A stretch of DNA of 64,000 bases, from assembly GCF_000226115.1 (NCBI RefSeq), contig NC_016458.1, positions 4,374,001 through 4,438,000 of the forward strand, given 5' to 3'. Positions 10,700 through 49,282 of the stretch are shown piece after piece. The stretch is from Thermothielavioides terrestris NRRL 8126 (taxonomy: Eukaryota; Ascomycota; Sordariomycetes; Sordariales; Chaetomiaceae). The notes under the pieces are model-generated. The model ran no database searches and had not been told where the DNA came from. It worked only from the letters and a program-made list of their open reading frames with translations. A program made the translations under genes and the position numbers. Each line of letters begins with the position of its first letter. Within the stretch, counting starts at the first letter, position 1.

Positions 10700-10703
10700 A
10701 TAT

Positions 10704-22399: not shown

Positions 22400-23760
22400 C
22401 ACTTCTATTTTTAGTTTATTTTTATTTATACCTTATATTCCTATCCCCTTGATCGTTTCTCTAAACTATATAACGTATATTCTATAGGTTAAGGAGCTCT
22501 CCAAAGTGTTTAAACTTCTAGCGAGTTAACACCTTTATAAAGCTATCTATAGGCATCTCTATAGTTGGTAAATATACGACTTTAAAAGACTCCTTCGTAT
22601 ATTTCTAATGTAGCTATATATTATAGATGTCAATATAATGTAAGTAAGTACTAATATATTTGTTCTCGCCTACTATAAGGCAAATAGTCTATATATTATT
22701 ATAGAATATAGTCTAAAGTATACCTAACTCAAGTTGCAAGTCGCTAAGGAAGTGCTTAAACGCTATTGTTTCCTATACTACGATAGACAAAGCAAGGAGC
22801 TCCGCCTCTATAGACGAAGTAGTAACTATATTCTAATACACTGCCTTCTAATAAATAAGCCTACCGAATAGAGAGATAAGGTAGCTATATAACGACCTAC
22901 GTATATTAGGGTTATCTATATATAATATATCCTCTATAATAAAAAGGATCTACGTAGGAACAGTATTCTATAGTATACCTCTGAACTAAATAGCGAGGAA
23001 GCGTATACCAAAGAGGTAGGAGATTATATACTTTACGACGTCGATATATATTCCCAAGGGGTTCATTGGAAAGTACAAGAACAACGAAGCTAGGAATACA
23101 ACTTCTATATATAGTACAACTACAGTATAGAGCAGTGATCTAACAAGCTCTTAGTACAGTTTGATCTATATTCGAGTAGCTATACCAATGAACTTGCGAA
23201 GCTCTTTATAGAGAGAAGGATACTTAGAATGGTAATTTAATCTATAAGACCGAAACGCTTTATAATCTTCTTAATATATTAGTTAAGGCAAAGCTAGATC
23301 TTACATTGTATACAATCGTAGATTACTTTAATACCTAGGAACTAAACTATATTACTCTTCTTATATACTTTGTACTTTGCTTTCAGAGTATCTATAATCC
23401 TTTAAGCCTCTTCTATATAGTCTCTATAGTAGAAGACTAGATAGTCATCTATATAGAATGGTATAAGTATATACCGTTGGTGGTCGAAGAATAAGTATAG
23501 TTTCTTAGGCAAAGCTATAAGGCCAAGCTTCTAAAGTACACTAAAGAACTTTTAGTACTAGAGCAATAGGGACTCTTATAAGCTATATAGAGTTCTCTAT
23601 AGTTCTATAAGAAATCTAGGCTCTTCGCACCCCTTAGGCATCTCGTAGACAACACCCTTAGGCAGGTCAGCGTTCAAGAACGTCTACACTACGTCGAACT
23701 GCTTAACCTTGAGATTAAACTATATAGCGATAGCTATCATTATATAGAACCAATATATAG
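22400..23760 (-). pseudogene. Copia-1b pol, C-terminal part (RT end and RNase H)
   Basis: Reverse complement of about 35,170-36,480 in the complete copia-1a. It contains the end of the copia-type reverse transcriptase and the RNase H domain, with TAG/TAA stops throughout. The right end is cut by the gypsy-2a LTR. Confidence 0.83.
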
Positions 23761-24262
23761 TAGATTAGAGTGATAGACTACCTAGACATAGGGAACCTAG
23801 TTTTTTCTGTTTTTCTATTTGTCTTAGAGCGTTATATTCGTTGCCAAGGGAAGTCTAACCCTCTAGTCATATATATTTAAGTGGGCTGAGCCTATCTTCT
23901 TCATTATAAGGGAAGACATTAAGTAGTTGTTAATACACGTTCGTTGACATTACGTTAGTGATTCTCCTTCTTCTAGGAAAGCTATTAAGCCTCTCCTTTT
24001 GTTGTCCTACCTCTATCTGGACGATAGGTATCTAAGCTATTGAGCTCTAACCGTATTCTTATTGACCTTTCTTATATTTCCGCTATATCCTACTAGACGT
24101 ATCTAAGCTATATATCTTCCTCTTAGAAGATAGCTTTTCTACTACTTGATATACACTATCTTTATCTATCTAGAGGGACACTGCATTCCTTTAGAAGCTA
24201 TTTTGCACGCCTAGTCCTAGGTATAGTGGGGTAGGTTGGTATAGAAGTTTTGCACTATTTTA
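23761..24262 (+). repeat. gypsy-2a 5' LTR (502 bp)
   Basis: Begins TAGATTAGAG (ancestral TGG changed to TAG) and ends CTATTTTA where the 3' LTR still has TTTCA. Confidence 0.9.
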
Positions 24263-25320: not shown

Positions 25321-28150
25321 CGCCTATCTATACGAAGGTACTTACAGTAATACCTTCTAGTCAATCTAAAGCCGAAGCTCTAAAGAAGATAACTAAGTAC
25401 GTTTTTACTACTACGCTTAGTACGACCTTTCTAACCCTAGTAAAGGCTAGCCTTTAGAGCTGCTTCTCTAGTTAGAATGCTATACAATAGATCGAGACCT
25501 TTAAAGAGATATATAAGACTTATTAGATTATTAATAATAAGACTTATATATACCTATTTAAGCTTTAGTACAATACTATAATCTAGCCTATTATCTATTA
25601 CTAGGAAAAAAAGGACTAAAAGACCTAGGCTACTTTTAAGTCTAAGTTCCTAAAGCGTTAGAAAAGTGATAATCCTAAGTAGTATAATAATAGAGGTTAC
25701 TTTTCTAATCTAATTAAAGGGAGATATTAGCTAGTCAGCAAGGTTATCTACAACTACTTCGAGTTAATCAACTATATATACGCTATCGCCCTTACCAAAG
25801 TTTATAAGAAGCTATAGTTTATAATTGTTCTAACGGTATAGTATATACTTAATTAGCAGATCTAGGTAGCTCTTAAGGACCGTTGGCGTACCCTAAAGAA
25901 GGACGACAAAGACTCTATCTATATTATAAAGTAGGTAGACTTCTTTAAGTTCGTTTAGAATACTCTTTAGAAGAGTCTTAACGTAGAAGACCTTTTCTTT
26001 AAGACCTATAAGCGTAAGATTGATCTATAGAAGTACTACTCGCTTCTAGCTATATCTACTATTAAGACGACTCCTAAGTTATAAAAGTAGGAAGAGGAGG
26101 AGCCAAAGAAAGCTCTTATATCTACGCCTAACGATATCGACGATCTAGCTAATTAGCTCTAACGTCTATATATCTAGAAGTAGAAGATCGCTAAGCAGTT
26201 TAAATAAAAGATCGAGGCCCTCCGTTTATATAAAATCGATTCTACTTTTAATAAGATTAAGGTTCTCCGAATGTATTTCTAGTAGTAGCGGAGTCGCTTA
26301 TAGGAGAGACACGTTAGCTTCGTCATTAGTCTATATATTAATAGTTGTTCTCTTAGCTATAGTAGACCTATAAGTTCTAGCTATTGCTACTACTATAGTG
26401 ATTCTAACTATATAGTTCTTAAGTATATAGAGGCTATAAAAGCTATAGCTATAGGTCTAATATATCGTAAAGGTATAGACTACTGCCTTAGCGATAGGAG
26501 TAAGAAGGGCTATACGCTAGCTAAGACGATCACCTTTACAAAGGCAGATATTAACAATATACGAAAGGTTAGTAAGATTAGCTAGCTCGTTCTTATATAT
26601 ATAATCTATTACCTACAATATAATAGCTATCCTATATACTAAGCTTACTACTATAAGTATAAGCGTTTAAATAGTCGTCTATTTAAGCTAGATATATCCT
26701 TAGTACTAAATAAGTACTACCTCTAGTAGCCTAAGCTATATTAGGAGCCTATAACCGTCTAGACGACGATCAATCGTCTTATATATAAAGAGGAGCCTGA
26801 GCTTACCTCCGCCTTCTATTATATAGCGTCTAATCAGTTGTCATTTTATATAGTCCTATTAGAAGGAGGTTGTATCTTAACTTAGAAGGTTATCCTATAA
26901 CCTATATTAAAGGCTAACGAATTTCGCTAACTACCTCTTTCTCTCTTTAACTAGACTGAGAGGGAAGCTAAGGAGGAAGTAGATAAGGAAGTGGAGACTA
27001 TACTTCAAGGTATACTACCTACTAAGCGTCGGTTTACTAAGAACAAAAGGGAAGACGACATCTAGATAGGCAATACTCCTATACCTCTAGTAGAGCCTCC
27101 TTATATAACTATCTTTAAGAACCTAGCTATAGCGAATCGTATAAAGAAAGAAGAGCTATAGTCTAAACTACCTACGTTGAAGGTTGCTACGTTACCTCTA
27201 TATATAAAAGATACGATCTATACTACAATGAAAGCGAAGACTAGTCTAACCTTTAACGACTTAGTCTATATTTCGTCTAAGTATAAGGATACTCTGATTA
27301 TATATCTATAGAGCATTTCCATTGATATCGAGGTCATTAACTATATAGGGTCTAATGTTCCTAAGCCTAATAGACTAGCTACTATACTAAAAGATATAGA
27401 GGTCTATATATAGGCTCTATATACTAATGTAAATACATTTAATAGCCTTCGCTCTAGCTAGACTAAGACAGTTCTAGCAATCTTCGGAGTTACTAAAGAT
27501 AGCGTATAGAGCATCTATATAGGAAGCCTCTAGGAGCACTAGATTTATAAGGGTCTACCTAAAGACGTTAACGATTATATCTATACCCTGCTCTAGAAGT
27601 CTATTTCAACGCTTTTAGTCCTAGAGTATATAGAACTTAGTGCGATAATAAAAGTGTAATCGCTTCCTACTTTATATATCTAGTTCAAGAAAGGTTATTA
27701 TAACAAGCATCTTACCTTAATTGACTCTAGTTCAAAGTACAACTATATCTCAATAAACGTTATTGAAAAATATACGCTACTATACTAGCCTATCAAAGTC
27801 GTTTCGAAGGGTCTTTATAGCTTAGCACTATTCCTTAGAGAGACCTAGGTCACTCTTTACCTAGGTAGAGTCGGTATTAACCTTTACTTTTTTATAACTA
27901 AGGACACTGCTAGTAGGTACAAAGCAATCTTTAGTATACTGTTTATCAAGAATATCGCTCTAACCTTCGATTACTATAATAGTAATCTAATCACTGCTAA
28001 TCTACTTATAGAAGGAAAGATAGTCTAGGTGTATATTGTCTCTAAGAAGATTATCTAGTAGAACTGCCTACTTCTCTAATATAACTAGCCGTTTAGGAAC
28101 AATTCTAGGGATTAACGAAGAGTTCTAAAAGAATCTCTAACTAGGTAAAG
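25321..28150 (+). pseudogene. gypsy-2a gag and protease remnant
   Basis: The first 340 bp match the gag segment of gypsy-2b. Further on, a Ser/Cys/Tyr-rich stretch (about 26,330-26,400) is followed by a long charged region. The retropepsin box Leu-Ile-Asp-Ser-Ser-Ser-Lys-Tyr-Asn (27716-27742) corresponds to the usual Asp-Ser-Gly-Ala-x-x-Asn, with Gly and Ala changed. Stops are TAG/TAA. The frame fades near 28,150, and the next clear coding (RT) begins near 28,500, so gag-pro and pol may be separate ORFs. Confidence 0.72.
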
Positions 28151-28499: not shown

Positions 28500-30753
28500 A
28501 TCTATTATAGCGAGAAAAGTAGTTTACAAAGGCTAAGGCCAAGATATAGTTCGAGAAAGACTAGGAAGACCTTATAGTCCCTTATTTCTTAGATCTTAAG
28601 CTAGGCTTAAGGCTTACTGAGGAACACCTTTATATAATGCTCGCTACTATAGATAAGTTCCTTAATAAGCTGAAAAAGGAGATATTCGCTACGATCTTAT
28701 AAAACTAAGAAGCTACGCTTATATAGGATTTTACTAAGTACAAGCGTATCTATAAAGATATTGTCCTACCCTAGTATATCAAGACTATCCTATATAAGGC
28801 CTAGCAGAGTAAGTCTATTCTAATTCCAAAGTCGCTAATATAGAAGGTCATTGATCTACTTAGAGAGAGGTAGATATATAGCATTATTAAATATAGCTAT
28901 ATAAGCTATTATAATAACTAGTTCCTTATTCTTAAGAAGGATAGTAGATTATAGCTTATTAATAATACTTAAAAGGCTAATATTATAATGATCTATAATG
29001 CTTTTATCCCGCCTACTATAGAGGAATTTAGTAAAGACTTCGGTAGCTATAAGCTAATGTCTCTTCTAGATCTCTTCTCTAGTTATAACTAGGTCAATCT
29101 TAATAAGTGGAGCTACGATTTAACAACCTTTTCAACGCTAATTAGTCTCTTCTATATATATGCATTGCTAATAGGGGGTACAAAATCCATTGCCCAGTTT
29201 TAGCGGACTATAGCAACGATCTTTAGTAACTTTATCCTAGATATTTATCGAGTCTACCTAGACAATATCATAGTAAAAGGCCCTCGATCTAATTATAATA
29301 GCCGTCTAGATAGAGGAGAACATTATAAATTTGTTGTTAAGCATCTTAAGAACATCGATATAGTATTCTTGAACGTAGAGCTAGTAAGTATAACTATCGC
29401 TATAGTAAAGTCGAAGTAGACGTAGCTAAAAGCAGTCCTATTTAGTTATCTTTATACACTTAATAGACACCTTCCTAAAGAAGCAAAGGTAATTAAAATA
29501 AGGGAGTAAAAGATCTGTTCTAACGTTAAAGAGGTATATACCTTCGTTAGAATAGTTGGATACTACTAGATCTAGATTAAAGGCTTTACAATTATTACAA
29601 TTCCTCTTTATACCCTAATAAAGAAAGATACTAAGTAGACTTAGGGGCCTACTAAGTAGAAGGCGATAGATAAGCTAAAAGAGAAAATTACTATTACTCT
29701 AGTCTTTACAATACTCGTCTATAGCGATTCGCAATACAATATAATCTTCCTAGTTTATAACGCTAGCATCCTCGGCTAGGGAGGTATACTCGAGTAGGTT
29801 GGTCCCAATAGCAAGAGACACCTATATAGGTTTAAGAGCGATATTTAGTTAAAGGCAGAGAAGTGGTATAATACTATAAAGAGGGAGCTAAGGGGGCTAC
29901 TCTTCCTCCAAAAGCGTTTTCGCTACTACCTTTTTAGTATATATTTTACTATAGAGACCAATGCTCTAGTTCTAATCTATTAGCTCAATAGTACTATAAA
30001 CAATGTTCTAGGTACTTTTATAATATACTAGATTATCTAGATCCGCCTATTTAACTTTGAGATCAAGTATATCCTAAGACCTAAGGACGTTGTAGCCAAC
30101 GCATTGTCTTATAAACTACCTAGGCCCACTAACTATGTAGAGAAGGAGTTGGAGAAGGATATTGACGACTAGGTCGACGCTTAAATCTTTATCAACTATA
30201 TAGGCAAAGAGACTTTATATCTGGAAGGGAAACTAGAATCTATCTACCTTTAGGATAGTTACTCCTAGTAGTCCTAGAATATCGCCTACTTCCTATCGAC
30301 GATAGAAGCTCCGTCTAGCTATAGTCTATACTAGAAACGACGTTAGCTTAAAAGAGAAGTATTAAAATACTTTATTAAGGATCGTCACCTTTTTCTCTAA
30401 AGTATAAATCACGTATAGTACTATAGGCGCATTATTGATACCCCTAAAGAGAGGCGTTTAATCTTCGACCAGTGTTATAATGAGGTTAGCTATTGTAGAA
30501 GGGAGCCAATATACTAACGGGTGATGAACCACTACTACTAGCGTAGTATATACGAAGATATAGCGAACTAGATTTAGGCTTATACCCTATATTAAGCGTA
30601 CAATGTTTAGAGGTTTAAGGAAGCAGTAGGTTGGACAGCGCCCCCGCCTTTTCTTTTTGTTAAATAGCACCTCGATATCTAATATATACTGTTTAGCTAT
30701 AGGGAGAAGAAAGGTTTCTTCGTTGAGGTTTACAACGATCTTATAGGATATAT
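28500..30753 (+). pseudogene. gypsy-2a pol: RT, RNase H and start of integrase
   Basis: Reverse transcriptase from about 28,780, including a Gly-Gly-Thr-Lys-Ser-Ile-Ala-Gln-Phe block and the active box Tyr-Leu-Asp-Asn (about 29,255-29,266; second Asp mutated) followed by Val-Lys-Gly-Pro. RNase H lies at about 29,710-30,110. The zinc-binding N-terminus of integrase lies at about 30,360-30,560, and the integrase core begins at about 30,650. The frame is cut in the core by copia-1a at 30754 and resumes at 38338. The family call rests on domain order and motifs; the match to the Val-Lys-Gly-Pro lineage is from memory of such proteins. Confidence 0.82.
30749..30753. repeat. Target-site duplication TATAT, left
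   Basis: Repeated at 38333-38337 on the other side of copia-1a. Confidence 0.88.
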
Positions 30754-30935
30754 TGTCGCATGCTAGTGCATACGTGACTCTACTTGCCAGGCTCCCTACG
30801 CTCAAGGGGCATATGTCAGCTCTGCCTATATATGTATATAGACCTCGGTGCTCCTCCTACCCTATATAAGAGGAGCACCTCCCTCAATATATATATCTCT
30901 ATATCCTATATAGCCCCACTTCGCTACTCTTCTCA
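30754..30935 (+). repeat. Copia-1a 5' LTR (182 bp)
   Basis: Starts TGTCGCATGC and ends TCTTCTCA. A TATATAAGAG tract about 120 bp in could be its TATA box. Confidence 0.9.
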
Positions 30936-31112
30936 GTTATAAGCCTAGTTTACATACAACACTTATAATAGCGGTATAGCCTAGTCGAGGCTATCCTTCT
31001 TCTTTTCTTCAACAACTACTTCAAGTCTTCTTAATCGTCAACAACTCCTATAAGTTTATATTATACCTATTGTTTAGTCTAAATAATATAGCACTTCTCA
31101 ATTTACTTTAAA

Positions 31113-34100
31113 ATGCCTCTTGAAACTAAGAAAACTGTTACCGTTGCTATTATAGCGCTTCTAGCCCTCGATAGCCCTAAAGACTAACTAAGATAGATCT
31201 CTACTATTCGCCAAGAGGCTAACAACTTATAAATTTAGTATATTATCGACCTAGATACCGAGCTCGCTATAGAAGCTAAGATGCTTAGCCTTCCTATATA
31301 GCCTACCTAGGGTACTGCCTATTAAGCGGTCTAGAATCACTATCTTTAGGCATAGTATATTGCGCTATAAACCTAGAAGGTAGCCGATCCTAACACTTAT
31401 AGCTAGGAGCCTTAGTCAACTAAGCCTACTAAGGAGGAGATCCACTATAAGTTCCTTAAACTATATAAAGTGTTCTTAAAATCTATTATCGACACTATAG
31501 CGTTCTATATAGTTAATAAGCTCTATAAGATAATCAATATATCTGTTAGCGACTACTACGCTTATACTATATATAATATTATAGAGGCTAAGAACATTAC
31601 TAGTATCTATAGGTTCATCTAGATGCTATACAAGATTATTATACCCTCTAATAGCGCTACCTTTACTACGTTTACTAAAGAGTATATAGCTATATTCGCT
31701 AAAGGTAGCTAGAGCAGTATCGAGCCTAGGACTTAGATTCTTAAATATATTTTAGTCCTCTATTGTATAAAAGTAGCTAATATCGCTATAGTTATCGATA
31801 CAATAGTAGTTACTACGTTCCTTAAGACTATATAAAAGCGCCTAGATCCTAAGTAGGCGACTTATACGTTGAAGGATATTAGCGTAGCTAAGAAGCTTAG
31901 TAGAAAAGGACTAACTCTCCTCAACTTAGCTCTCTCGCTTAAAGCGATCCTTTAGGCCAAAGCGGTAGTCTACCTAAAGCCTAGAACCTACCCTATACTT
32001 CTAGGAGCGTAGAACAGTTAGAAGAGTGGTTAGAAGTATAAGAAAAACCGTGACTACCTATATATACTGAAGACTTATCGCTATTAATAGCTTCCTTTAG
32101 AGTATCGGCAACTTTGGTATACTCTAACAAGGGAATCTCTAAATAGCGTAACGTTCCTAAGCGATATAGTAAACAAAGTATATTAACGATTCGCTAAGGA
32201 GCGCTAGAACGACCTTTAGATAGAGCTTTAAAAGCTTAGCTAGAAGATCTAAAACGTATTGTTAAACGCTAAAGCTATTAGTTCTAATAGTAGTATAGGT
32301 CCTTTATTTCTAAGAGCGCTCTAAGTATATATTGTTATCGATCTAGCAATTGTAAACGAGCTTGAAAGAGCGTATAGCGTATTTATATCTCTTGAGTTTA
32401 GCCTATATCCGCTTAGCAAGTACATTCTATTTAATAACTATAGAGTAGTCAATTTTGTTAATGATAGGGCTCTCCTTGTCCCTAGTACGTTCGTTAAAAT
32501 AAGCGGTAAAACTGTTGAGGCTAGCACTATATCCTTCTCTATCTCTAGCTATAGTAAATAGATCATTAAGAACGTTTTAAACAATATATATAGCCTAAAC
32601 ACTAAGGACCTTGTTATAGACAACGTTGCTATTATAAAAGGCTTTTACGTCAACATTGTCTCTAAGAGACGCCTCTAAGTATAGGGCGCTTAGTACTATA
32701 GTCTAGATTATATACTATATTGGAGAACGTTAGAAAAGAGTATTATACTTAGGCAACTAGTTGAGAAGTTCAACTTGACCTTCTTATAATATAACGCTCT
32801 TTCCTCCTACTCTAATGCTCTTAGAGCGCTCTCTAGAAGCTTTGCTAGACTTATAACTATAAACGCTATAGTTGTAAAGAACTTTAGGAGGGGTAGGCTT
32901 TCGAAGGACCTACTCCTAAAAAGAGAAGACCTAGCTACTCTCTAGTACGTTAGAGCTAGTTATCTAAGTTTAGAGGCGCTAGAACATCTCGTCTTAAACG
33001 CTAGAGGTATATAGATTTATAGGCCCTATAGGCTAGAATACAAGGTATATATATAGGTATATATAGAACAGGTTATTTCGCGCCGCCTACTATTGAGGCC
33101 GTTACTACGCCTATTCTAGAGAGTCTCTTAGGACCTATTCGATTTTCCAAGAGCGCTTAATAGCTTAAACTAGCTACTAGTCATTAAAGATAAGTATAGT
33201 AGGAAGCTCTTTACAACTCCTCTTATATATAAGATATATAATAGTATATACAATAAACTTATTCGCTTTGAATACTAGGTAAAACGCTAATTTAGGTTGC
33301 CTATTTGCAAGATTAGGTAGGACGATGACACTAGTGTCATTGGCATTAAAGGATATACTATATACAAGCTCTAGGTATAGGAGTAGGGCATTGATTTAGA
33401 GGTAACACCTTTAGATACTAAGGAGCCTAATAGCGGTTTAGAACGTATAGGCAAGGAACTTATCACTAAGAGCATTGCAATGCTTATAGGCGCTAGACTT
33501 TCTTAGAACCTATAGCTAGAATCGATAGTTATAGCTATATACTTATATAGCATTAGCTTAAGTCGTGTTTATAACTATTGCTTACTAAATAAGGTGCTTA
33601 ACTCTTAGTTTAAACATTGGTTCCGCTAATATTAGCCTAGTCTAGTATATATACTAACTGCTAACCTACGCCTAAACTAGGGTAGCATTTATATATACGG
33701 CTATTAAGCGTATCTATTAACGAAGGAGCGTAAAAAGGGGATTAAAAGGTATATTAGAAAGGTTAAACCTAGAGCGTATATCGAATATTTTATTAAATAT
33801 AAGGCGTCTAATATTTACTGCATTTAGGTACTAAAATTTAGAAAGGTTATTACAATGTGCAATATAACCTTTAATAAACGTATATTTTACTAGGAAGGTG
33901 AAGAGCAGCTTAATACTTAATTAGTAGTAGTTGCTAGAAAGGTTGTTGAGCTTATCGAACTCCCTATAGAGCCTTAGGACGCTAAGGCAGTGCCGTTTAG
34001 AGTTATAGATGCCTATAAAGACCTTATAACGGTTCCTAGCTCTCTAAGACATCTAGGGGGTATAGCTAAATAGGAACTAAAAGGGCAAGCTCCTCTCTAC

Positions 34101-36470
34101 TCTCTATCCTATCTAGGGGGTATAGAAGTACTTAAGTATCGTAGCTAGAGTTTAGGTAAAGAGCCTACTAGTAGTCTTTATACTTTAGAATCAACTTCGA
34201 AGCTACGTTAGGAACGCCTAGACGTATCTAGAGAGAGTAGCCCCCTTGCTAATTATAGTGCTAGCAGTGATAGTAGAACGGTAGGAACTACATTATTGGA
34301 GGCCTCTAATATAGTTATTAGAGACGCTAATAGCAATGTTGCTAGCAGTATAGCTAAGAGTACTAGCTAGGGTAGTACAATGGCAAATACTACTATAGTC
34401 GATACTCTTAATAGCGATAAGGAGGTCGACTACCCTAGCGATTAGCTAAAGGCTCTAGACAACTAGGAAGACGCTTTAAACTATAGTTCTTAGCCTAATT
34501 CTAGAATACTTATAGCCTAGCTAGCGAAGGAGAAGTGTAAATATATATATAAGACTTATAAACTACCTACTTGTTAGTTAAGACGAATTTATAGACAGTC
34601 TCCTAGTAGTAGTGTAGATAGAAGCGGCGGTCTAGTATACTTCGTAGCCCCTATATACTATAAAGAGGGCATCGACGTACTAGATTAGTATATATAGTAT
34701 TTGTTTAGCTATACATTTTTAGATAACCCTATAAACGCTCTATAAAAAGGCGATAGTATCTAGCACTATACACTATATACGGTTTTTATAGTAGTAGTCC
34801 ACTAATATCGTGACGTATATCCTAGGGCAACGCTAAGTAGGCCTAGAGTATATTTTGACGACCTCGCTAAGCTTCCTAAGCGCTAGAAGGATCTTGCTAA
34901 CCATCTTTAAAGGCGTAAGTTTATAAAAGTGGCTAAAGAAGAGATTTGTAATCTCGTTAATAGAAAGATATAGCGCAAAATATAGTGTAAGACCTTTAAG
35001 GGGAAACCACTGCCTCTGAAGTAGGTTTTCGTCTATAAGTTCGATTAGGATAGCAACCTCAAGAAGTATAAGTTGTATATCTACGTTCGTAAGGATCTTT
35101 AAGAGCTTACTACTCTATAAAGCACTTATATAGCTATACTCGTAGTACGCTCGTTCTATATAATAATGGCTATCGCTATATAGTTTAATCTTAAGGTTAA
35201 ATAGTTCAACGTAGTATAGACGTTTTTAAACGCCGACCTACCTAAGGGTGTTGTCTACAAGATGCCTAAGGGGTTCGAAGAGCCTAGATTTCTTATAGAA
35301 CTGTAGAGAGCTTTATATAGCTTATAAGAGTCTCTGTTGCTCTAGTACTAAGAGTTCTCTAATACACTTTGGAAGCTTAGCCTTATAGCTTTGTCTAAGG
35401 AACTATATTTGTTCTTCGACCATCAATGGTATATGCTTATACTATTCTATATAGATAACTATCTAGTCTTCTACTATAGAGACTATATAGAAGAGGCTTA
35501 GAGGATTATCGATACTCTAAAAGCGAAGTACAAAGTATATAAGAAGGGGGACGTAGCTTAGTTCCTAGGTATTAGGGTGATTCGCAACTACGTACAACGT
35601 AAGATCTAGCTCTGCCTTAACTAGTATATTGAGAAGATTGTAAAGCGTTTTAGTCTTATAGATTAAATCACCTTTCTAAGTATCTCTCTCTCTATAATAG
35701 AGCTTCGTAAGTTCATTAGTATAGCCACTTAAGTATAGATCAAACTGTACTAGGAGCTTGTTAGATCACTGCTCTATACTATAGTTGTACTATATATAGA
35801 AGTTGCGTTCCTAGCTTCGTTACTCTCGTACTTCCTAACAAACCCCTTAGGAATATATATCAACGTTGCAAAGTATATAATCTCCTACCTCTTTAGTATA
35901 TACTTCCTTGCTATTTAGTTTAGAGGTGTACTATAGGATACTGCTTCTACGTAGATCCTACTTATCGTAGAGGACATATTATATATAAATAACCTTAATA
36001 CGTATAGGTCGTTATATAGCTACCTTATCTCTCTATTCGGTAGGCTTATTCATTAGAAGGCTATACGCTAGGATATAGTTATTATTTTGTCTATAAAGGC
36101 GGAGCTCCTCGCTTTATCTACCGTAGTATAGGAAACGATGGCGTTTAAGCGCTTCCTTAGCGACTTACAACTTAAGTTAAGTGTACCTTAGACTATATTC
36201 TATAACAATATATAGACTATTCGCCTTATAGTAGGCGAGAACGAATATATTAGTACTTGTCTACGTTATATTGATATCTATAATATATAGCTACGTTAGG
36301 AATATACAAAGGGGTCTTTCGAAATTGTATATTTGCTAACTATAGAGATGCCTATAGATAGGTTTACAAAGGTATTAATTCGCTAGAAGTTTAAATACTT
36401 TAGAGAGCTCTTTAACCTATAAGATATACGTTATATAGTTTAGAGAGATAATTAGAGGGATAGAAATATA
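31113..36470 (+). pseudogene. Copia-1a gag-pol remnant
   Basis: ATG at 31113 (Met-Pro-Leu-Glu-Thr-Lys-Lys) opens a Gag region. Protease traces follow around 32,300-32,700, then the GAG-pre-integrase and integrase core (about 32,750-33,500), a linker with a conserved capsid-like SH3 segment (about 33,840-33,920), reverse transcriptase of copia type (about 34,980-35,700) with Phe-Tyr-Ile-Asp-Asn at 35445-35459, and RNase H (about 35,940-36,330). It appears to be one long frame of roughly 1,780 codons broken by TAG/TAA stops. The second catalytic Asp of RT is Asn. The exact end is unclear because the last codons are stop-rich in both copies. Confidence 0.87.
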
Positions 36471-36568
36471 AGGTATAAATAAAAATAAACTAAAGATAGG
36501 AATGTACATTAGTACGAAATAGACTAGGGGGTGCCTATACCTACGAAATAATAAAAAAAAATATAAGA

Positions 36569-37500
36569 CTACTTACTACCCTTCTTTTTCTTAGGGGTAA
36601 GCGTAGCAAGCATTGCTATAACTATACTACGCACTAGTGTATCTAGGTCAAAGCCTAAAGTAGCCTCCTCCTTATCTTTATCTTTATCCTTGTCCTCCTC
36701 TTTGCTCTCCTCTTTCTTAGCCTTCTTAGCCTTCTTAATAGGTATAGCCACCTTCGCCTTGCCCTTACCCTTGCCTTTAATAGGCGTAGGCGTACGCTCC
36801 TCGTTGTTATTATTATCGTTATCGTTGGCGTTAGTGTCTTTACCCTCTATAGTAAGGAGGGTATATAGAGTAGCGTATAGGTTCTTCTAGTCCTATTATA
36901 TATAGTTAGAACAGCACTTTTCCTTTGTTATTTCATTTGTTATTATTTACGAGATTAGGCTTAGGGGCTTAGCGCCCCTACATTATAGCTAAGAACTACT
37001 TAGCGACTAGGAGGATATTGTTAGGACTACTTTATTAATATAGTATACCTACCAACTATATTGATATACTTATATAGGGCAGTACTTCTTGCTATATATA
37101 TAGCGTATATATTAGATAGCTTTGCTAGAGGCCTCCTAGCACTCCCTATTGCTCTTGCTATATATAGTGGACTTAAGGTAGCCAAGGTAGGGCACCTCTT
37201 TAAGGGCGCCCTCCTCCTCCTCTTCCTCTAAAGAGGAGGAGGAGAAGGGGAGCACTATACATTTGGAGAGGGTCTTTGGCGTAGCGGGGGTCTTAGGCGT
37301 AGCGGGGGTCCTATTGCAAGTATTAGATATATAGATATACGTATTGCACTGGCTATGCAATCTACGGTATACTCACTTCTTGTTAACGCTAGCGCTAGAC
37401 TTAGAGGGGGTAGCTAAAAGTAGAGTAGGCTTGTTCTTAGCTACCTTAGTAGCGTAAGCCTTTTTAAGGGTAGCGAGGCGTATAGTAGACAGTATAGCTA
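36569..37500 (-). pseudogene. Copia-1 accessory ORF (antisense to pol), copy a
   Basis: Tail-to-tail with pol, ending within about 100 bp of it. Segments still open are 36569-36751 and 37136-37360. Seen in order: Leu-Lys-Lys-Ala-Tyr-Ala-Thr-Lys basic start; a region with Cys residues and TAT codons at likely former TGT positions; a Pro/Thr repeat (Thr-Pro-Ala-Thr-Pro-Lys twice); a Ser then Glu run; a second Cys-rich block; a Gly-Lys repeat; and a Lys/Glu/Asp-rich C-terminus with Lys-Asp repeats followed by a short hydrophobic helix and Lys-Lys-Lys-Lys-Gly-Ser-Lys. It resembles no family I can name. Conservation with 21410-22335 shows it belongs to the element. Confidence 0.7.
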
Positions 37501-38150
37501 TTGTTGTTGTTAATATTGTTATTGTTGCTAATACTACTGCTATTGCTTATAGTCTATAGAGGAAGAGTTTAGGAGAAGGTTTAAGGTGTACTTACTACAA
37601 TTATATACTTTTAGAAGTATAGCTATCGACTAGCCTATAGCACTATAGTATTGTCTATATAGCGCGAATATAACAATAGGCGACAATGGTAGGTATATAT
37701 TTAAGACGTTAGGCAACAATAGCTACAATAGTATATACCTAAATGATTACAATGCTCAATTGCACGATATAAACCTATAATCAAGGTAGTGCAATTTGAA
37801 ATATAAGTCAATAGCGTACCTAAATAAGGGATAGGAATAGACTGTATAGCGCAATTAGGAAATACATATAATACGATCAATGGCGCTTATATCAATGTTA
37901 ACAATAGTGCCCTTGAATATCAACAATGGAACCCAATTGTATACAATGTATTATATAGTTTGCTAACGTAGGTAGCTAGACAATGCTTATACAACGGCGT
38001 AGCAACATTTATATAATAGCTATAATTGTACACAATAGTAGAATCAATGCTAGAGGCTACAGTTCAATGCGTCTAGCAATGCGAGCTCCAAAGTCAGTGC
38101 CTAGTATATATGTTCTATAGATAGCCTCTTGTAAGCCTGTCTAGGGGGTA
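37501..38150. other. Copia-1a spacer before 3' LTR, with polypurine tract
   Basis: No gene. CAA/GTT-rich low-complexity sequence near 37,500, then AT-rich sequence shared with the other copia-1 copies. The polypurine tract GTCTAGGGGG lies at about 38,139-38,148, directly before the LTR. Confidence 0.7.
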
Positions 38151-38332
38151 TATCGCGTACTAGTGTATATATGACTCCACTTGCTAGGCTCCCTACGCTT
38201 AGGGGGCATATATCAGCTCTGCCTATATATATATATAGACCTCGGTGCTCCTCCCACCTTGTATGAGAGGAGCACCTCCCTCAATACACATGTCTCTGCA
38301 TCCTATATAGCCCCACTTCGCTGCTCTCCTTA
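38151..38332 (+). repeat. Copia-1a 3' LTR (182 bp)
   Basis: Same length as the 5' LTR. The terminal TG and CA have become TA and TA. It is followed by the TATAT duplication. Confidence 0.9.
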
Positions 38333-38337
38333 TATAT

Positions 38338-39690
38338 CGAGGCTAAGATTCTACTAAATAAATCTTCTAAGTCTATTAAATCCTTTATCTTATAGTATAT
38401 CCTTTATCGCTAGGGTTATCCTATAGTTATAGTTGTCAATAAAGGCTCTAAGTTTAAAGGCGAAGTTAAGGAGATCCTTTGTAAATTAGGTATTAAAAGA
38501 GTTATTATCTTACTATATAATTCACGTATAAATAGTGTAAATAAGGCTAGCTACATCCTAATTGCCACCTTGTTTACGAAGATAACTAATAGTATAGGAA
38601 AGAGGTAGAGAGAGCTCCTTCTATATATCTTATATATAGATTATACAACTATTAGAGGCTTTTATAGAATGTCTCCCTTCTTTCTTGCCTACAATTATAA
38701 GCCTATCAGTCTAATTGAGTTTAATGTTCCTATATAGCGAATTCTTATCTAGGACTCTGTCTATACTCGGTTAGAGGGAGAAGATCCTATAAAGGTCTAT
38801 ACAAAGCTCATTGCCCTCTATACCTATATCCTCTAGGAAGTAGAGTACCATTATAAGATTGCTACTAAATAGGTTGCTATAGTCTACGAAAAGATAGCTA
38901 AGTATTGTAATAAGGCCTATAAACGTAAATTTTGCCTAGAAAATATAGTTATATCCGTTAGTAATCTCGTCTTTGTCTACAACAATATACGCTAGCTAAA
39001 TATAAGCTTAGTTCGGAAGCTAGAGTATTGCTAGTTCAGCCTATTCTATATTTAGATAATTAAAGACTTAGACATTTACTTCCTAAAGACTCTAGACAAT
39101 ATACCTATCTAGACGCTATATCCTCTAAACTATATAAAGAAGTTCTTTAAGCTAGATAATATCTAGTTAGAAGTAGACAGTATAAACCTATTCCTCTATT
39201 TAAAGGGGCATAGCGACGACAAGCACCGCCTTAATAGTCGCTTAAGGCTCTACAAAGATAGTGAAGAGGGATCTAACGCTACTAAAGACAACTAGAATAC
39301 TAGCGACTAGACTATAGGTTGTTACCCCTATTAACCAACTAAGAATTCCAATAGTAGCCAACTAGTTAAGCTTCCTCGTAGCAATGAACTATATAGCGCT
39401 TTAACTAGTCAATAGCACTGCCTTAGCAATCTTCATTACGCTTATAGCAACGGCCTATTGAGGAAGAAAACTATATAAATAGTCGTAGAAGATGCTATAA
39501 TTACAGTAGAGGAAGAGGTTCTTAAAGAGGAAACCCCTAGTTATATTATAGCGCCTTAGACTAGCTGGACTCGCTTAACCGCGAAAGGGGCAAGGAAGGA
39601 GCGACCTTATTAAAAGCTTATCGTTGAAATCCCCTATAGAAAGCTACCTAGTTTTTAATACTAGCCCTCTAGACGTATAGGGATATATAT
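38338..39690 (+). pseudogene. gypsy-2a pol, integrase core and C-terminus
   Basis: Resumes the integrase frame cut at 30753. Val-Val-Asn-Lys-Gly-Ser-Lys (about 38,430) stands where integrases have Val-Asp-x-Gly-x-Glu, and Thr-Thr-Ile-Arg-Gly-Phe-Tyr-Arg-Met-Ser-Pro (about 38,650) matches the Thr-Gly-Met-Thr-Pro block after the core. A charged C-terminal region follows to about 39,690. Catalytic acidic residues appear as Asn/Lys, consistent with G to A changes. Confidence 0.78.
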
Positions 39691-40350: not shown

Positions 40351-41272
40351 TCCTTCTCCAACTAGATATAGTTAGTATACTTATTAGCAAAGAGAGGAGT
40401 AAGAGAAGTATAGCTATTAAAGAGCTAAGTTATATAGATATCCCCATCTTTATTAAAAGGAGTTGTTGAACGTTGGTACGAAAGTTCGTAGCTTTAGTAA
40501 GGAACTTTATTACTATAGGAGTATTAGTTTTCTTCTATTTAGAGGGCAAGTATAAAGGGAAGTATAGTACTTACTTGCAACCTTATACCAAGATTAAGAG
40601 AGCTGAAGCTTAGTTTAAACGTATAGTAAGATGATATATCTAATGCCTAAGTAGTCTACTATTGTGATGCTCTATAAACACTAGACAAAGAACTAAGGTA
40701 TTATAGTGCTATTTAATTACGTTAACTAGCCTATCGCTAATATAAACTAATTACTATATTTTATACTAATCTTACTAATTGCTTAGTAGGACCTACTAGA
40801 TGTATAACAATCTAACGTTTAGTCGAAAGATCTTGATTATACTGTAGATAGCCTTATATTTAACTAAGATTATAGTATATTCGTTAGTATAGCACTTATC
40901 TTTTGGTATCGGCGAATCCCTTATTTTACTTTGGACTACCTAGATATACTTTTAAGCTATAAAGATTGTTGTTTTTAGTATTAGTGAGAGATCGATCTAG
41001 CAGTTTATAATCCTATACAATAGTAGCCTCTAGTCGCTTACTTTATTAGTAATTTCCTATAATACGTCGTAGGTACGTTAGCTGCTTAGCATTATAGTTT
41101 CTAGGTTGTAAATTTATATATAGGAGCTATATACGAATTTAAAAGAGAAGTAGAAGACCTAACTAAGAACCTAATCCGCTTAGAGAAAGGAGGGTACTAG
41201 AATAAAGTAGTAAGAAGGTTAAAGGAAGAAAATGCTTCTAGGATAGTAAAGAAAAGAGGAAGGCTTTAAGAA
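40351..41272 (+). pseudogene. gypsy-2a extra ORF 1, unknown protein with C-terminal coiled-coil-like segment
   Basis: A plus-strand frame can be followed from about 40,700, probably earlier, to about 41,272 through RIP-type stops. It is a different frame from the next ORF. It holds a hydrophobic stretch (about 40,740-40,790), an aromatic-rich middle, and a C-terminal Lys/Glu/Leu-rich run from about 41,130 (Phe-Lys-Arg-Glu-Val-Glu-Asp-Leu) that looks like a coiled coil. I recognise no family. The start is not defined. Confidence 0.5.
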
Positions 41273-41399
41273 ATTAGGGGGCGAACGATTATTTCTAGCT
41301 AATTAGTAGGCACTACAAGCCTTATCTATTTTCTTTTACCTAGTTTAAAAAAGAGCTAAGTAGCCCTTTTACCTTCAAAGGCTTGCCTACCCCTTTTTC

Positions 41400-43790
41400 C
41401 TAATCCTCTTACTAGCTTTCTTACAATTAACTATTTCTTTTGCCTTGCCTACTATACCTTAGATTTTCTTGCAATCACTTTAATTGGTCTAGATCTTTCT
41501 ACCTAGAGAGCGACTTTTCTATTAAGCTAAATTTTTATATATTATTATAAGCATTGCTATAGGTTGTTGTAGGATTCCCAATTTTATAGGGCCTATATAA
41601 TCTTAAGCTAATATAACTGCTGCTCTAGGATAGAAGTAGCTGCTTAGAGAGCTTAAGCTTTATATACCGCTAGGTTCGTAAAGGCTTATAGAAGATAGCG
41701 ATTAAGTAAGGTATTACACCTCCCTTATAAGGCAAGAGCTAGACTTAAAGATGCTAAGTCACCCTAAGGAGACTAGTCCTAAGCTTTTTCTATTTCTATA
41801 GACCCTAAAGAAGTACTTATAAAATATAATTAACTAGTGCCCTAATTGGATTTAGAGCCCTCGAATTAGCGTAAACCCTAAGATCGTAAGCTACCTGTTC
41901 CTAGGCTAGCTAGAGGAGAGGTATACGATAGATCGGTTTTTTAAGGTTAGTTTTATAGATATAGGTATTTCGCTCTTCGATATAGAAGGTATACTACTTA
42001 CTAAGGAATAGCTAGAAGGCTAGATAATCCTAGACGTTATATAGTTTTTCTTTCATCCTTATAAGGACTGTCTCTAGTTCTACCTATAGCCTATCTTAGA
42101 TACTAGTCCTATACTAAAGGAGTTCCACTAGTCTAACTAAAAGATTATTACTAACCATTGTCGTTTTTAGGTCTTCCTTTGCTTCGTTAATAGAAGGCAT
42201 TAAGCTATTGTAATCTTCGATTATATCGTAGACTAGCTTTACTACTTCGACTCTATACTTAAAAGTATAGAGATATATACTAACATCTTGTTAAAGGTCT
42301 AGATTACTTTCTAGTCTGTCTATAGGTTCTCTTAGTTATAGTTATATAAGGAGGTTATCGTCTACTACCCTTAGTAAAGTTTAGAATAGGAGTATAGATA
42401 GTTCGCCTTTGAGTTTATATAGGCTTTTCTTTAAAAGCTCTAGCCCTACCTTTTAGATAGATAGACGTAGTTTAGGCTACCCTAGCTTTAGCTATACTAG
42501 GGAGATAGCGAGATAGTTGTATAGCGGTGTATATTGCACTTGTAGTTAGGAGCTTATAGGAATGCTCTTAGTACCTTCAAAGATTGCCTGCTCTATACTA
42601 AGGGAATCCCTTTGTTATAGTAGAACGAAGGGAAGATGTATAAGCTCCCTCTAGACCTATTATCTTTAACCTAAGAAACTATATAGCTTATATTCTTAGA
42701 GTATAACGAAGACAAGGTAATCGAAGTCCTTTAAGCCGACGATATATTTATACCTAATATCCTTAAATTCAATAACCTATCTATATATCTCTGTGTCTAC
42801 TTTAGTAATATAGAACTTAGGATCCTAGTTATATACTTAGTAGCGTTTAGGGAAGCCTAGCTCCCTAACTAAAGTAAAAAAGGAGTAATTGCCACTATCT
42901 AAATTATCTTTACGCCCTAGTCAAAGAAGGATATAACGTATTAGGTATACTACTATAGGGTTATAGGACTTCTATTAGACAAATAGTTTAGCAGTGTACT
43001 ACCTCTATAAAACCCTATAGACAACCTTAGACAACAACTATAGGGTACATTTCTAGTACCTAGCACCGTTCCGCCCCTCCAACTAGAGGACTAGCTAGTT
43101 GCTTTAGGTCCATCAACAGTACTTTATAGAGAATTTTAACAATATATTAACCTAGCAAGATATTAAAGCTAAGATTATAGAGATTACTATACTATAAGCG
43201 ACTACAATATAGAGGCTTGTCGTTACCCCTATAGACAAGATAGACTAAGAGCGCCTCCTTAGGAGTAAGCTAGTTAAGAACCTTAGGGCACTAGTATAAG
43301 TAGCTCTTAAAAAGATAGTACTTGATCCCTACCTCTAGGAAGAGGAGACGCTCGTTTATATACTTATAAAGAGGCTAGACTACCTTAAAATGCTTTATAC
43401 TCTAGTATAGAAGTATCTTTAAGCGCGAAGATTGTCTATATTATCTAGCTAAACATTACTTTCAGTGTAGTATCGTAGTAAACGTCTTTGTAAGAAACCT
43501 ACGAAGCTTAGACATCTGCTTCGCCTACTACTATACAACCTATACGACTATGCCTTTGCCTACAAGTATAAGTATCTAGTATAGTAGCAAGGCTAGGATA
43601 TATATATTAAGGAGGTAGTAGAGTATAAGAGACAGTGTAATCAACTACTATAGCTAGCTAGACGTTTATAAGCCGAGAGAGCTATATATAGAGAGCAATT
43701 TAAAGAGTAGCGACAATGAGAGGCGTATATTAGAAAGCTTTTAAGGTATAAGCTTACCTATAGGAGTATATAGCAAGCTTAAAAGAGAAG
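41400..43790 (+). pseudogene. gypsy-2a extra ORF 2, Ulp1-like (C48) cysteine protease remnant
   Basis: One frame can be followed from about 41,400 to about 43,150. Around 42,021 it has the Trp-x-x-x-Asp-x-Ile entry motif of Ulp1/SENP proteases (Trp codon now TAG). His is at 42198-42200 followed by a probable Trp (TAA), and Asp of Tyr-Tyr-Phe-Asp-Ser is at 42249-42251. A TAA at 42375-42377 falls where Ulp1 has the oxyanion Gln (CAA), and a TAT at 42393-42395 where it has the Cys (TGT), next to AGA where Gly would be GGA. Spacing His+17, +59, +65 compares with +17, +60, +66 in yeast Ulp1. Downstream sequence looks coding up to the 3' LTR, partly in another frame, with a Glu/Arg/Gln-rich helix near 43,630-43,760. 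Such enzymes remove SUMO-like modifiers. This copy is dead. Confidence 0.7.
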
Positions 43791-43792
43791 TG

Positions 43793-44294
43793 TAGATTAG
43801 GGTAATAGACTACTTAGATATAGAGGACCTAGTTTTTTCTATTTTTCTATTTGTCTTAGAGTATTATATTCGTTGCTAAGGGAGGTCTAACCCTCTAGTT
43901 ATATATATTTAAGTAGGCTAAGCCTATCTTCTTCATTATAAGGGAAGACATTAAATAGTTGTCAATATACGTTCGTTGACACTACGTTGGTAGTTCTCCT
44001 TCTTCTAGGAAGGCTATTAAGTCTCTCCTTTTGTTGTCCTACCTCTATCTAGACGATAGACATCTAAGCTGTTAAGCTTTAACTATATTCTTGTTGACCT
44101 TTCTTATATTTCTACTATATCCTACTAGACGCACCTAAGCTACGTGTCTTCCTCTCGGAAGACAGCCTTCCTACCACTCGATACGCACTATCTTCATCTA
44201 TCTAGAGAGACACTGCATTCCTTTGGAAGCTATCTCGTATGCCTAGTCCTAGGTGTAGTAGGGTAGGTTAGTGTAGAGGTTTTGCACTATTTCA
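43793..44294 (+). repeat. gypsy-2a 3' LTR (502 bp)
   Basis: Preceded by the polypurine tract AAAAGAGAAG and two bases (TG), and followed by ATGG, the right copy of the 4-bp target duplication. Confidence 0.9.
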
Positions 44295-47200
44295 ATGGTA
44301 AGTGTAGCTATATAAATGCTTTATAGTATAGTAAGCTTCTAAAGATCCCTATATATAAAGATATATAACTTACACTTCTTAAGATTACTATTCTAATTGA
44401 ACTTATAGATAAAAACCTATTTTAAAGGTAGTGGTCTTCTTTTAAAGGTCTTACGCTAAATCTTATACTATATCCTCCTATTGACGAGATTATAGATCTT
44501 TTCCTTAACCGCTTTTATAAACTTGTGCTTTTAAAGGTAGTTGGCGAGGTCCTTCTAGCGCTTAGGAAGCTTAGTAAGGTCGTCGAATTATACTTCAAGC
44601 CTACTACTTAGCGTTGCCTTAGGACGTATATTACGATATTGGTGGATTATTACTATGAAAACCGTATACAATGTATAGTGCTAGATACTATCGCCCTTCT
44701 ATAGAGCGTTTATAGGGTTATCTAAAATGTATAGCTAAACGAATGCTATATATACTAATTTAGCACGTCGATGCCCTCCTTATAGTATATAGAGGCTACA
44801 AAGTACATTAGACCGCTATTTTTACTTATACTACTGCTAGGAGACTGTTTATAGATCTATTTTAATTAATAAGTAGGTAGTCTATAAGTCGTATATATAT
44901 ACTTACGCTTCTCCCTCGCTAGCTAGGCTATAGATGTTCTAGAATTAGGCTAAGAACTATAGTTTAAAGCGTCTTTCTAGTCGTCTAGAGCCTCTAGCTA
45001 ATCGCTAAGGCGGTCAACCTCCTTTCTAAAGCTAGAAGTATCGACTATAGTAGTACTTACTATTATACTACCTTGGCTAACACTCCTAGTTATACTATTA
45101 ACGACACTACTATTAGCGTCTCCGATGACTATATTAGAGGCCTCTAATAATATAGTTCCTATCGTTCTATTGTTATTGCTAGTACTATAATCAGTAGGGG
45201 AGTCACTCTCTTTAAATACTTCTAGGTATTCCTAATATAGCTCTAGAGTCGGTTCTAAAGTATAAAAACTATTAGTAGGCTCCCTATCTGAACTCTAGCT
45301 ACAATACTCGAATACTTCTATACCCCTTAGATAGGATAGAGAGTAGGGAGGAGCCTACCCTTCTAGTTCCCGTTTAGCTATACTCCTTAGATGTCTTAGA
45401 GAGCTAGGAACTATTATAGGGTTTTTATAGGCATCTATAACTCTAAATAGCATTGCTTTAGCGTTCTAAGGCTCTATAGAGAGCTCGATAAGCTCAACAA
45501 CCTTTCTAATAACTACTACTGATTGAGCATTAAGCTACTTTTCGCCCTCCTAGTAAAATATACGTTTATTAAAGGTTATGTTATATATTATAATAACCTT
45601 CTTAAGTTTTAGTACCTAGACGTAGTAAATGTTAGACACCCTATATCTAATAAGATACCCGATATACGCTTTAGGTTTAACCTTCCTAGTATACCTCTCA
45701 ATCCTCTTTTTATACTCCTTCGTTAATAGGTATACTCGATAGCTATATATATAAATACCATCCTAGTTTAGGCGTAGGTCAGTAGTTAGCATATATACTA
45801 GACTAGGCTATATTAGTAGAACCAATATTTAAACTAAGAGTTGAGTACTTCATTTAGCGAACGATAGTTGCAAATACGACTTAGGCTAATACTCTCTAAG
45901 TATATAGCTACAACCGTCGATTTTAACTATAGGTTCTAAAGAAGTCTAGCGCTTATAAGCATTGCGATGCTCTTAGTAATAAGTTTCTTACTTATATATT
46001 CTAAACTGCTATTAGGCTCCTTAGTATCTAAAGGTATAACCTTTAAATCGATATCCTACTTCTATGCCTAGAGCTTGTATATAGTATATCCTTTAATACC
46101 AATGACACTAGTATTGTCGTCCTACCTAATCTTGCAAATAGATAACCAAAATTAGCGTTTTACCTAGCATTTAAAGTGAATAAGCTTATTGTATATACTA
46201 TTATATATCTTATATATAAGAGGAGTTATAAAAAGCTTTTTATTATACTTGTCTTTGATGATTAGTAGCTAGTTCAAGCCGTTAAATGCTCTTAGAAAAT
46301 CGAATAGGTTCTAAGAGACCCTCTAAAATAGGCGTAGTAACGGCTTTGATAGTAGGCAGTATAAAATAACCTATTCTATATATACTTGTATATATACTTT
46401 ACATTCTAGTCTATAAGGCCTACGAATCTATATACCTTTAGCGTTTAAAACAAGATGTTTTAACGCCTTTAAACTTAGATAACTAGCTCTAATATATCAG
46501 ATAGTAGCTAGGTCTTCTATTTCTATAAGCGGGTCCTTTAAGGGCCTACCCCCCCTAAAGTTCTTTACAACTATAGCGTTTATAGTTATAAGTCTAGCAA
46601 AGCTTCTAGGGAACGCTCTAAGAGTATTTGAGTAGGAGGAAAGAGCGTTATATTGTAAGAAGGTTGAGTTGAACTTCTTAACTAGTTACCTAAGTATAAT
46701 ACTCTTTTTTAACGTTCTTTAACGTAGTATATAATCTAGACTATAGTACTAAGCGCCCTATACTCAGAGGCGTTTTTTAGAGACGATATTAACGTAAAAG
46801 CCTTCTATGATAATAATGTTGTCTATAATAAGGTCCTTAGTATTTAGGCTATATACGCTATTTAAAACGTTTTTAACGATCTATTTATTATAGCTAGAGA
46901 TAGAGAAGGATATAGTACTAGCCTTAATAGTTTTACCGCTTGTCTTAACGAATATACTAGAGATAAGGAGAGCTCTATTATTAATAAGATTAACCACTTT
47001 ATAGTTGTTAAACAGAATATATTTACTAAGTAGATATAGGCTAAACTTAAGAGATATAAATACACTATACGCTTCTTTAAGCTTGCTTATAATTGTTAGA
47101 TCGATAATAGTATATACTTAGAGCGCTTTTAAAAATAAGGGACTTATACCACTATTAGAACTAGCAGCCTTAGCATTTAATAATATATTTTAGATCTTCT

Positions 47201-48783: not shown

Positions 48784-49282
48784 TAAAGTAGTGCAAAACC
48801 TCTACACCAACCTACCCTACCACACCCAGAACCAGGCATACGCGATAGCTTCCAAAGGAATACAGTGTCCCTCTAGACGGATAAAGATAGTGCATATCGA
48901 GTAGTGGGAAGGCTGTCTTCTAAGAGGAAGACACATAGCTCAGGTACGTCTAGTGGGATATAGTAGAAAAGATAAAAAACAACGAGAATACAGTCAGAGC
49001 TCAATAGCTCGAATACCTATCGTCTAGACAGAGGTAGGACAACAAAAGGAGAGGCTCAATAGCCTTCTTAGAAGGAGGAGAACCACCAACGTAGTGTCAA
49101 CGAACGTATATTGACAACTGCCTAATATCTTGCTTAATGATGAAGAAGAAGGGCTTAGCCCACTTAAATATATGTGACTAGAGGGTCAGACCTCCCTTGG
49201 CAACGAATGCAACGCTCTGAGATAAATAGAAAAATAGAAAAACTGGGTCCCCTATATCTAGGTAGTCTATCACCCTAATCTA
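48784..49282 (-). repeat. gypsy-2 solo LTR 'c' (499 bp)
   Basis: Full-length inverted gypsy-2 LTR without internal sequence, flanked by the 4-bp duplication ATAC (48780-48783 and 49283-49286). This is the expected product of recombination between the two LTRs of an inserted element. Confidence 0.9.

What the first reader, a model, noticed from the sequence alone, without database searches (positions are those of the whole stretch)
41400..43790. A Ulp1-type SUMO-protease remnant inside a giant Ty3/gypsy retrotransposon
Downstream of integrase and before the 3' LTR, gypsy-2a carries an ORF with the His-Asp-Gln-Cys layout of C48 proteases. His (42198) and Asp (42249) are intact. The Gln and Cys positions read TAA (42375) and TAT (42393), exactly what RIP would make from CAA and TGT, and the neighbouring Gly codon reads AGA (from GGA). 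Spacings of 17, 59 and 65 residues from His match yeast Ulp1 (17, 60, 66). The Trp-x-x-x-Asp entry motif is also present. Ulp1-like genes are known as passengers of some plant DNA transposons; I do not know of one fixed in a fungal LTR element. A retrotransposon that strips SUMO could interfere with silencing or integration control.
Basis: partly seen in the sequence, partly recalled or inferred. Interest (0 to 1): 0.88.

Follow-up and report, generated by a model that had tools for sequence, protein, structure and literature searches.

The report
Broken SUMO-protease-like gene in retrotransposon
Dozens of mutated copies of a virus-like mobile element in a heat-loving fungus carry, at the same place, the remains of a gene that resembles a SUMO-removing protease and likely once helped the element against host silencing.

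Summary
The catalytic layout is real and not private to this copy. The element is a Ty3/gypsy LTR retrotransposon of about 13 kb, stretched to 20.5 kb here by a nested copia element, in a genome matching Thermothielavioides terrestris. An extra ORF between integrase and 3' LTR lies 4.6-6.1 kb behind RT in 31 of the 40 RT places scored. In 39 copies, the window's included, catalytic codons are seen intact without repair: His 25, Asp 31, Gln 29, Cys 3; Trp follows His in 15. No copy has all four. Statistical support is moderate: PF02902 is matched by 2 of 39 copies, only with stops read as Gln, below cut-off; one host C48-like protein scores above all 200 shuffles, three other templates do not; structure models are poor; no third-position bias. 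The expected Gly and entry Trp are seen in none of 39. Pol also has an aspartic protease motif, so this protease is likely accessory. Likely role: removing SUMO from host silencing factors. My searches showed no C48 in an LTR element. New variant of a known kind.

The parts
23760..24262 (+). 5' LTR of the Ty3/gypsy element
   Evidence: 88% identical to 43792-44292
27720..28050 (+). aspartic protease (retropepsin) region of pol, approximate (placed from copy L050)
   Evidence: LIDSG...ILGIPFI in the pol frame of L050; Asp codon GAC in 9, Ser codon TCT in 8, Gly codon GGT in 2 of 10 copies; motif names recalled; no Pfam match
29020..30608 (+). reverse transcriptase - RNase H - integrase zinc domain, in Ty3/gypsy order (RT and integrase placed from copy L050)
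   Evidence: window: RT_RNaseH 7.6e-07 at about 29747-29989; L050: RVT_1 2.7e-04, RT_RNaseH_2 1.8e-11, RT_RNaseH 1.4e-10, Integrase_H2C2 0.0039 in one frame
30755..38331 (+). nested Ty1/copia element, not part of the gypsy element
   Evidence: RVT_2 1.1e-12; LTR pair 30756-30930 / 38153-38327; 12 of 13 upstream loci run straight from about 30754 to 38332, the 13th (L048) lacks the stretch
41751..43790 (+). extra ORF (about 680 codons) between integrase and 3' LTR; frame position mod 3 = 0 up to about 43121, then mod 3 = 1 because this copy has one extra base
   Evidence: ATG at 41751 in 14 of 27 copies; net length mod 3 as in the window in 24 of 25 other copies over 41700-43100 and 38 of 38 over 42198-42700; 26 of 26 others lack the extra base
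41958..42444 (+). C48 (Ulp1)-like catalytic core inside that ORF
   Evidence: PF02902 matches in L015 and L063 span His to Cys; L014 box-to-box match
42198..42200 (+). catalytic His codon CAT (CAT in 25 of 39 copies; next codon TGG in 15 of 39, TAA here)
42249..42251 (+). catalytic Asp codon GAC (31 of 39 copies)
42375..42377 (+). oxyanion Gln position, TAA here (CAA in 29 of 39 copies)
42393..42395 (+). nucleophile Cys position, TAT here (TGT in 3 of 39 copies)
43791..44296 (+). 3' LTR, directly after a purine-rich tract

Best explanation
The sequence is likely the remains of an extra, element-encoded Ulp1-like (C48-like) cysteine protease that a Ty3/gypsy LTR retrotransposon family carried between integrase and 3' LTR, and that would have removed SUMO or a related modifier from host proteins to ease silencing or integration of the element. 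Shown: the region lies at the same distance behind RT in 31 of 40 RT places scored, its catalytic codons are seen intact one by one in different copies, and all 97 matches found in the genome contain stops. Inferred: that the frame made a folded protease, that SUMO was its substrate, and that lowering SUMOylation helped the element. Because the pol frame also has an aspartic protease motif, the C48-like protease is probably accessory and not the enzyme that matures Gag-Pol.
For: Copies: 97 matches of the frame, 69 spanning at least 370 of 375 residues, all with stops; 31 of 40 RT places have it 4.6-6.1 kb downstream. Codons in 39 copies: His 25, following Trp 15, Asp 31, Gln 29, Cys 3, the Cys copies lying in two subfamilies. 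PF02902 in 2 of 39 copies, E 0.0058 and 0.098, over residues 138-223 and 142-227, i.e. His to Cys; both are among the three copies with TGT; 0 of 60 alternative-frame controls. 38-copy profile against host protein L014: score 26.4, 0 of 200 column shuffles reach it (best 21.1), aligned His box to His box; BLASTP of L021 with L014 E 0.002. Length mod 3 kept. Conservative-substitution score favours this frame in the core (0.24 against -0.22 or lower in five others). AF2: strands carrying His and Asp and a helix starting at Cys, an order that I recall from Ulp1. Reduced SUMOylation raises Ty1 RNA in yeast (PMC8585004, abstract and passages).
Against: PF02902 hits are below the curated cut-off (16.9 and 12.9 against 20.7 bits) and vanish when stops are read as X or W; unrelated families reach E 0.0039 in the control frames. 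Profile against 120 cellular Ulp1 sequences: 16.7, beaten by at least 8 of 100 shuffles; of four templates only L014 stands out. No homologue in two searches, no C48 chain in PDB by sequence. Gly after Cys and entry Trp unobserved in 39 copies. Transversions over 41766-42890 are not concentrated at third positions of this frame (first/second/third 20/12/11), while the pol control shows the expected bias. Stops do not single out the frame: of stop columns that show a sense codon, 31 of 34 here but 51 of 54 in frame +2 include Gln, Trp or Arg. In 300-base bins other frames often score better. Models have pLDDT 36 and 43.
Confidence: 0.58

Rival explanations
1. The extra ORF is real, but its C48 layout is chance or a non-catalytic relic: the ORF encodes an unrelated accessory (env-like or structural) protein.
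For: Additional ORFs of unknown function or env-like ORFs are known in gypsy elements (PMC2864245, passages). Weak database scores, missing Gly and Trp, no third-position bias. Relaxed RIP-tolerant layouts occur 16 times in 52 kb.
Against: Other copies show the expected letters at the Trp-after-His, Gln and Cys positions without repair; the family named beforehand is hit, over the right residues; box-to-box match to L014 beyond 200 shuffles.
Confidence: 0.26
2. A C48-like protease used as the element's own maturation protease (cleaving Gag or Pol), as the Ulp1-like protease of Polintons and adenoviruses is thought to work in capsids.
For: Ulp1-like cysteine proteases are shared by Polinton-type elements and DNA viruses (PMC10175614, passages; their role is recalled).
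Against: An aspartic protease motif LIDSG...ILGIPFI lies in pol upstream of RT, so the usual maturation enzyme seems present.
Confidence: 0.08
3. A host C48 gene piece picked up late by one subfamily as a passenger without function.
For: The genome holds a host C48-like gene, L014, that is the best match.
Against: The ORF is shared by subfamilies whose read-through proteins are 69-75% identical to L021 (part of that distance is RIP) and lies at the standard distance in 31 of 40 RT places; similarity to L014 is limited to about 20 residues.
Confidence: 0.07

Closest known systems
Peptidase C48 / Ulp1-SENP family (PF02902)
   Different: Below Pfam cut-off; no copy with all four residues; Gly after Cys and Trp entry motif not seen; sits in an LTR element
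Ginger1 DNA transposons with a C-terminal Ulp1 domain (PMC2836005, passages)
   Same: Mobile element with a gypsy-like integrase and a Ulp1-type domain
   Different: Cut-and-paste DNA transposon; Ulp1 fused to the transposase; here a separate ORF in an LTR retrotransposon
Mutator-like elements with ULP1 genes (Hoen 2006, van Leeuwen 2007, cited in PMC2836005; not read)
   Same: Element-borne C48-type gene
   Different: DNA transposons
CryptonF/CryptonS with C48 peptidase (PMC3212892, passages)
   Same: C48 domain in mobile elements of oomycetes
   Different: Tyrosine-recombinase DNA transposons
Fungal Ty3/gypsy elements with dUTPase or an additional ORF (PMC2864245, passages)
   Same: Fungal gypsy elements with an extra enzyme or ORF
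   Different: dUTPase; no C48 in the passages seen

Membership tests
Ty3/gypsy LTR retrotransposon | paired LTRs | tested here: met
   23760-24260 and 43792-44292, 88%
Ty3/gypsy LTR retrotransposon | RT, RNase H, integrase in this order | tested here: met
   L050: RVT_1 1285-1389, RNase H 1496-1606, Integrase_H2C2 1760-1813 in one frame; RVT_1 and H2C2 are below cut-off, both RNase H models above
Ty3/gypsy LTR retrotransposon | aspartic protease upstream of RT | tested here: met
   motif only: LIDSG...ILGIPFI; no Pfam match
Peptidase C48 (PF02902) | His-Asp-Gln-Cys in order with Ulp1-like spacing | tested here: met
   spacings 17/59/65; codons seen in 25, 31, 29 and 3 of 39 copies, never all four in one copy
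Peptidase C48 (PF02902) | profile match above the curated cut-off | tested here: not met
   best 16.9 bits against 20.7, 2 of 39 copies, Gln reading only
Peptidase C48 (PF02902) | Gly after the catalytic Cys | tested here: not met
   AGA 38, AAA 1 of 39; RIP could hide GGA
Peptidase C48 (PF02902) | Trp entry motif | tested here: not met
   no TGG at 42009 or 42021 in 39 copies; RIP could hide it
Peptidase C48 (PF02902) | Ulp1 fold | tested here: inconclusive
Peptidase C48 (PF02902) | cleaves SUMO or NEDD8 | not testable with these tools
   no activity can be measured here

The most novel reading that the evidence does not exclude
A fungal Ty3/gypsy lineage carried its own SUMO protease as a counter-silencing weapon, the first such enzyme fixed in an LTR retrotransposon, and the host's RIP defence destroyed it in every copy.
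Probability: 0.32. Interest if true: 0.8.

Novelty: new variant of a known kind. Interest (0 to 1): 0.55.

Why it matters
C48-type proteases recur in DNA transposons (Mutator, Ginger, Crypton) and Polintons, but the searches (open-access papers only; 20 of 39 papers listed, 2 of 3) showed none in an LTR retrotransposon. In yeast, lowered SUMOylation raises Ty1 transcription (PMC8585004), so an LTR element with its own deSUMOylating enzyme would make an element-host conflict over SUMO testable in fungi.

Tried and rejected
Window frame and 19 copies with X at stops against Pfam: nothing (in one row, L031, was given one base out of frame by my slip, set right from then on). Stops read as W: 0 of 39 for PF02902; TAA as Q with TAG/TGA as W: 0 of 6; X: 0 of 3. 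Protein searches with the element: none at E 1 or E 10. PDB by sequence: no C48 (one search gave two unrelated regulators). Profile against cellular Ulp1: not significant. Stop counts and stop columns do not single out the frame. No third-position bias of transversions in this frame. Foldseek and VIA: no significant match. Relatives in other fungi could not be searched: the tool holds none for this genome. The idea that the element is giant was rejected (nested copia). The maturation-protease idea was lowered (aspartic motif).

The 27 copies include the window's own, so the extra base is lacking in 26 of 26 others. Stop columns, first counted as support, do not discriminate and were moved to the evidence against; for that I lowered the main odds from 0.60 to 0.58, raised the chance rival from 0.25 to 0.26 and lowered the novel case from 0.33 to 0.32.

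Full report
Where it is. The window is part of a 36,912,256-base, six-contig genome. A host Ulp1 gene in it is 100% identical, over the 256 residues searched, to a protein named Thermothielavioides terrestris. Bases 1 to about 52000 are AT-rich and RIP-like, with CpA, CpC and CpG low and CpT high.

The element. A 500-bp LTR pair at 23760 and 43792 (88% identical) bounds the element. Inside it sits another element with its own LTRs (30756 and 38153) and a Ty1/copia RT match (RVT_2, 1.1e-12). Twelve of 13 upstream loci run straight through that point; the 13th, L048, lacks the stretch. So it is a nested insertion and the element itself is about 13 kb. Copy L050 shows RVT_1, RNase H and Integrase_H2C2 in Ty3/gypsy order in one frame, and upstream of RT a retropepsin-like LIDSG...ILGIPFI motif (motif from memory).

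The extra ORF is part of the element. The frame has 97 matches in the genome, 69 of them spanning at least 370 of 375 residues, all 97 with stops. Starting from RT instead (the 40 best-scored of 78 candidates), 31 of 40 places have a match to the frame 4.6-6.1 kb downstream on the same strand (one of these, at C1:4236884, only the part behind the Cys), one at 0.6 kb, seven at 9.9-19.5 kb (the window copy among them, because of the copia), and one has none within 20 kb. Relative to the window, net length modulo 3 is unchanged in 24 of 25 other copies over 41700-43100 and in 38 of 38 over 42198-42700; the window copy has one extra base near 43122 that 26 of 26 others lack. LTR lengths vary more freely, but in only 7 copies: 0, 0, 0, -1, -2, -2, -4. 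So the ORF probably runs from about 41751 (ATG in 14 of 27) to the polypurine tract.

The catalytic layout. In 39 copies (27 of the closest family, the window's own included and one exact duplicate, L023, dropped, plus 12 of more distant subfamilies; all chosen by a match to the frame): His CAT 25, TAT 13, TAC 1; next codon TGG 15, stops 24; Asp GAC 31, AAC 8; Gln CAA 29, TAA 10; Cys TGT 3, TAT 35, TAC 1; Gly position AGA 38, AAA 1. The three TGT copies fall in two subfamilies (L015 and L017; L063), which fits an ancestral Cys lost in parallel by RIP; at TG sites where at least one copy keeps G, a median of 21% of copies keep it. No copy has all four; 17 have three.

Is it C48? For: with stops read as Gln, 2 of 39 copies match PF02902 (L015 E 0.0058, 16.9 bits; L063 E 0.098, 12.9 bits), over His to Cys, and these are two of the three TGT copies. 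Sixty alternative-frame translations of 12 copies gave no PF02902 match, though unrelated families reached E 0.0039; what counts is that the family named beforehand is hit, at the right residues. The 38-copy profile aligns box to box with host protein L014 above all of 200 column shuffles. Against: with X or W reading there is no match; Ulp1, L009 and L012 give scores within the range of shuffles or of other frames, although the best local match of the 17-copy profile with Ulp1 and L012 also falls on the His box; no relative was found in the protein collection; the Gly and the entry Trp are never seen; transversions do not show third-position bias (20/12/11 for first/second/third), whereas the pol control does; stop columns do not single out the frame (31 of 34 against 51 of 54 in frame +2); a conservative-substitution test favours this frame in the core (0.24 against -0.22 or lower) but not in every neighbouring 300-base bin. 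AF2 models are poor (pLDDT 36 and 43), though their order of helices and strands around His, Asp and Cys recalls Ulp1, and CE-clan proteases turn up among weak matches: ranks 4 and 5 of the second Foldseek list, and 13 of 50 VIA rows (clan membership recalled). I call it C48-like and do not file it as a member.

How it would work. Predicted: a deSUMOylating or deNEDDylating enzyme made from the element's own RNA. In yeast, loss of SUMO conjugation (Ubc9, Siz1 with Siz2) or of Ulp1 tethering raises Ty1 RNA, and the Nup84 complex limits both Copia and Gypsy Ty elements (PMC8585004, abstract and passages). An element-borne SUMO protease could act the same way. All of this is inference for the present element.

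Novelty. Ulp1/C48 modules are known in Ginger1, Mutator and Crypton elements and in Polinton-type elements. Searches of open-access papers for Ulp1, C48 or SUMO protease with LTR, gypsy, retrotransposon or transposon words showed no LTR element that encodes one; of those papers I opened passages of five (PMC2836005, PMC3212892, PMC8585004, PMC6264045, PMC10175614), plus PMC2864245.

Noticed in passing
L010 (C1:6053870-6057418) and L011 (C6:2166009-2169557): The host Ulp1 gene region is present twice, 3,549 bases 100% identical with an intact ORF, on two contigs of a RIP-prone genome: a very recent duplication or an assembly artefact.
   Followed up: partly
L023 (C3:1894050-1897050) and L024 (C1:3390730-3393730): 2,973 bases of the RIP-mutated element are 100% identical at two places, so this stretch was probably duplicated after RIP.
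   Followed up: partly
L014:910-3069 (C1:3149179-3151338): An intact 719-aa host ORF with a C48-like domain below Pfam's cut-off (15.7 bits) and a long Pro/Ala/Lys-rich tail; of the four host C48 templates the one most like the element's core.
   Followed up: partly
window 1-52000: RIP pattern: CpA, CpC and CpG are low but CpT is high, as if spared.
   Followed up: no
window 39175-39500: Stretch between pol and the extra ORF that differs in length among copies, while the flanks align well.
   Followed up: no
window 41166-41766: Just upstream of the extra ORF, substitutions are most conservative in another frame (position mod 3 = 2), which hints at a further coding stretch next to the ORF's start (not clear in the smaller bins).
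   Followed up: no
window 8310-10704 and 48784-49282: Further LTRs of the same family, one in inverted orientation.
   Followed up: no
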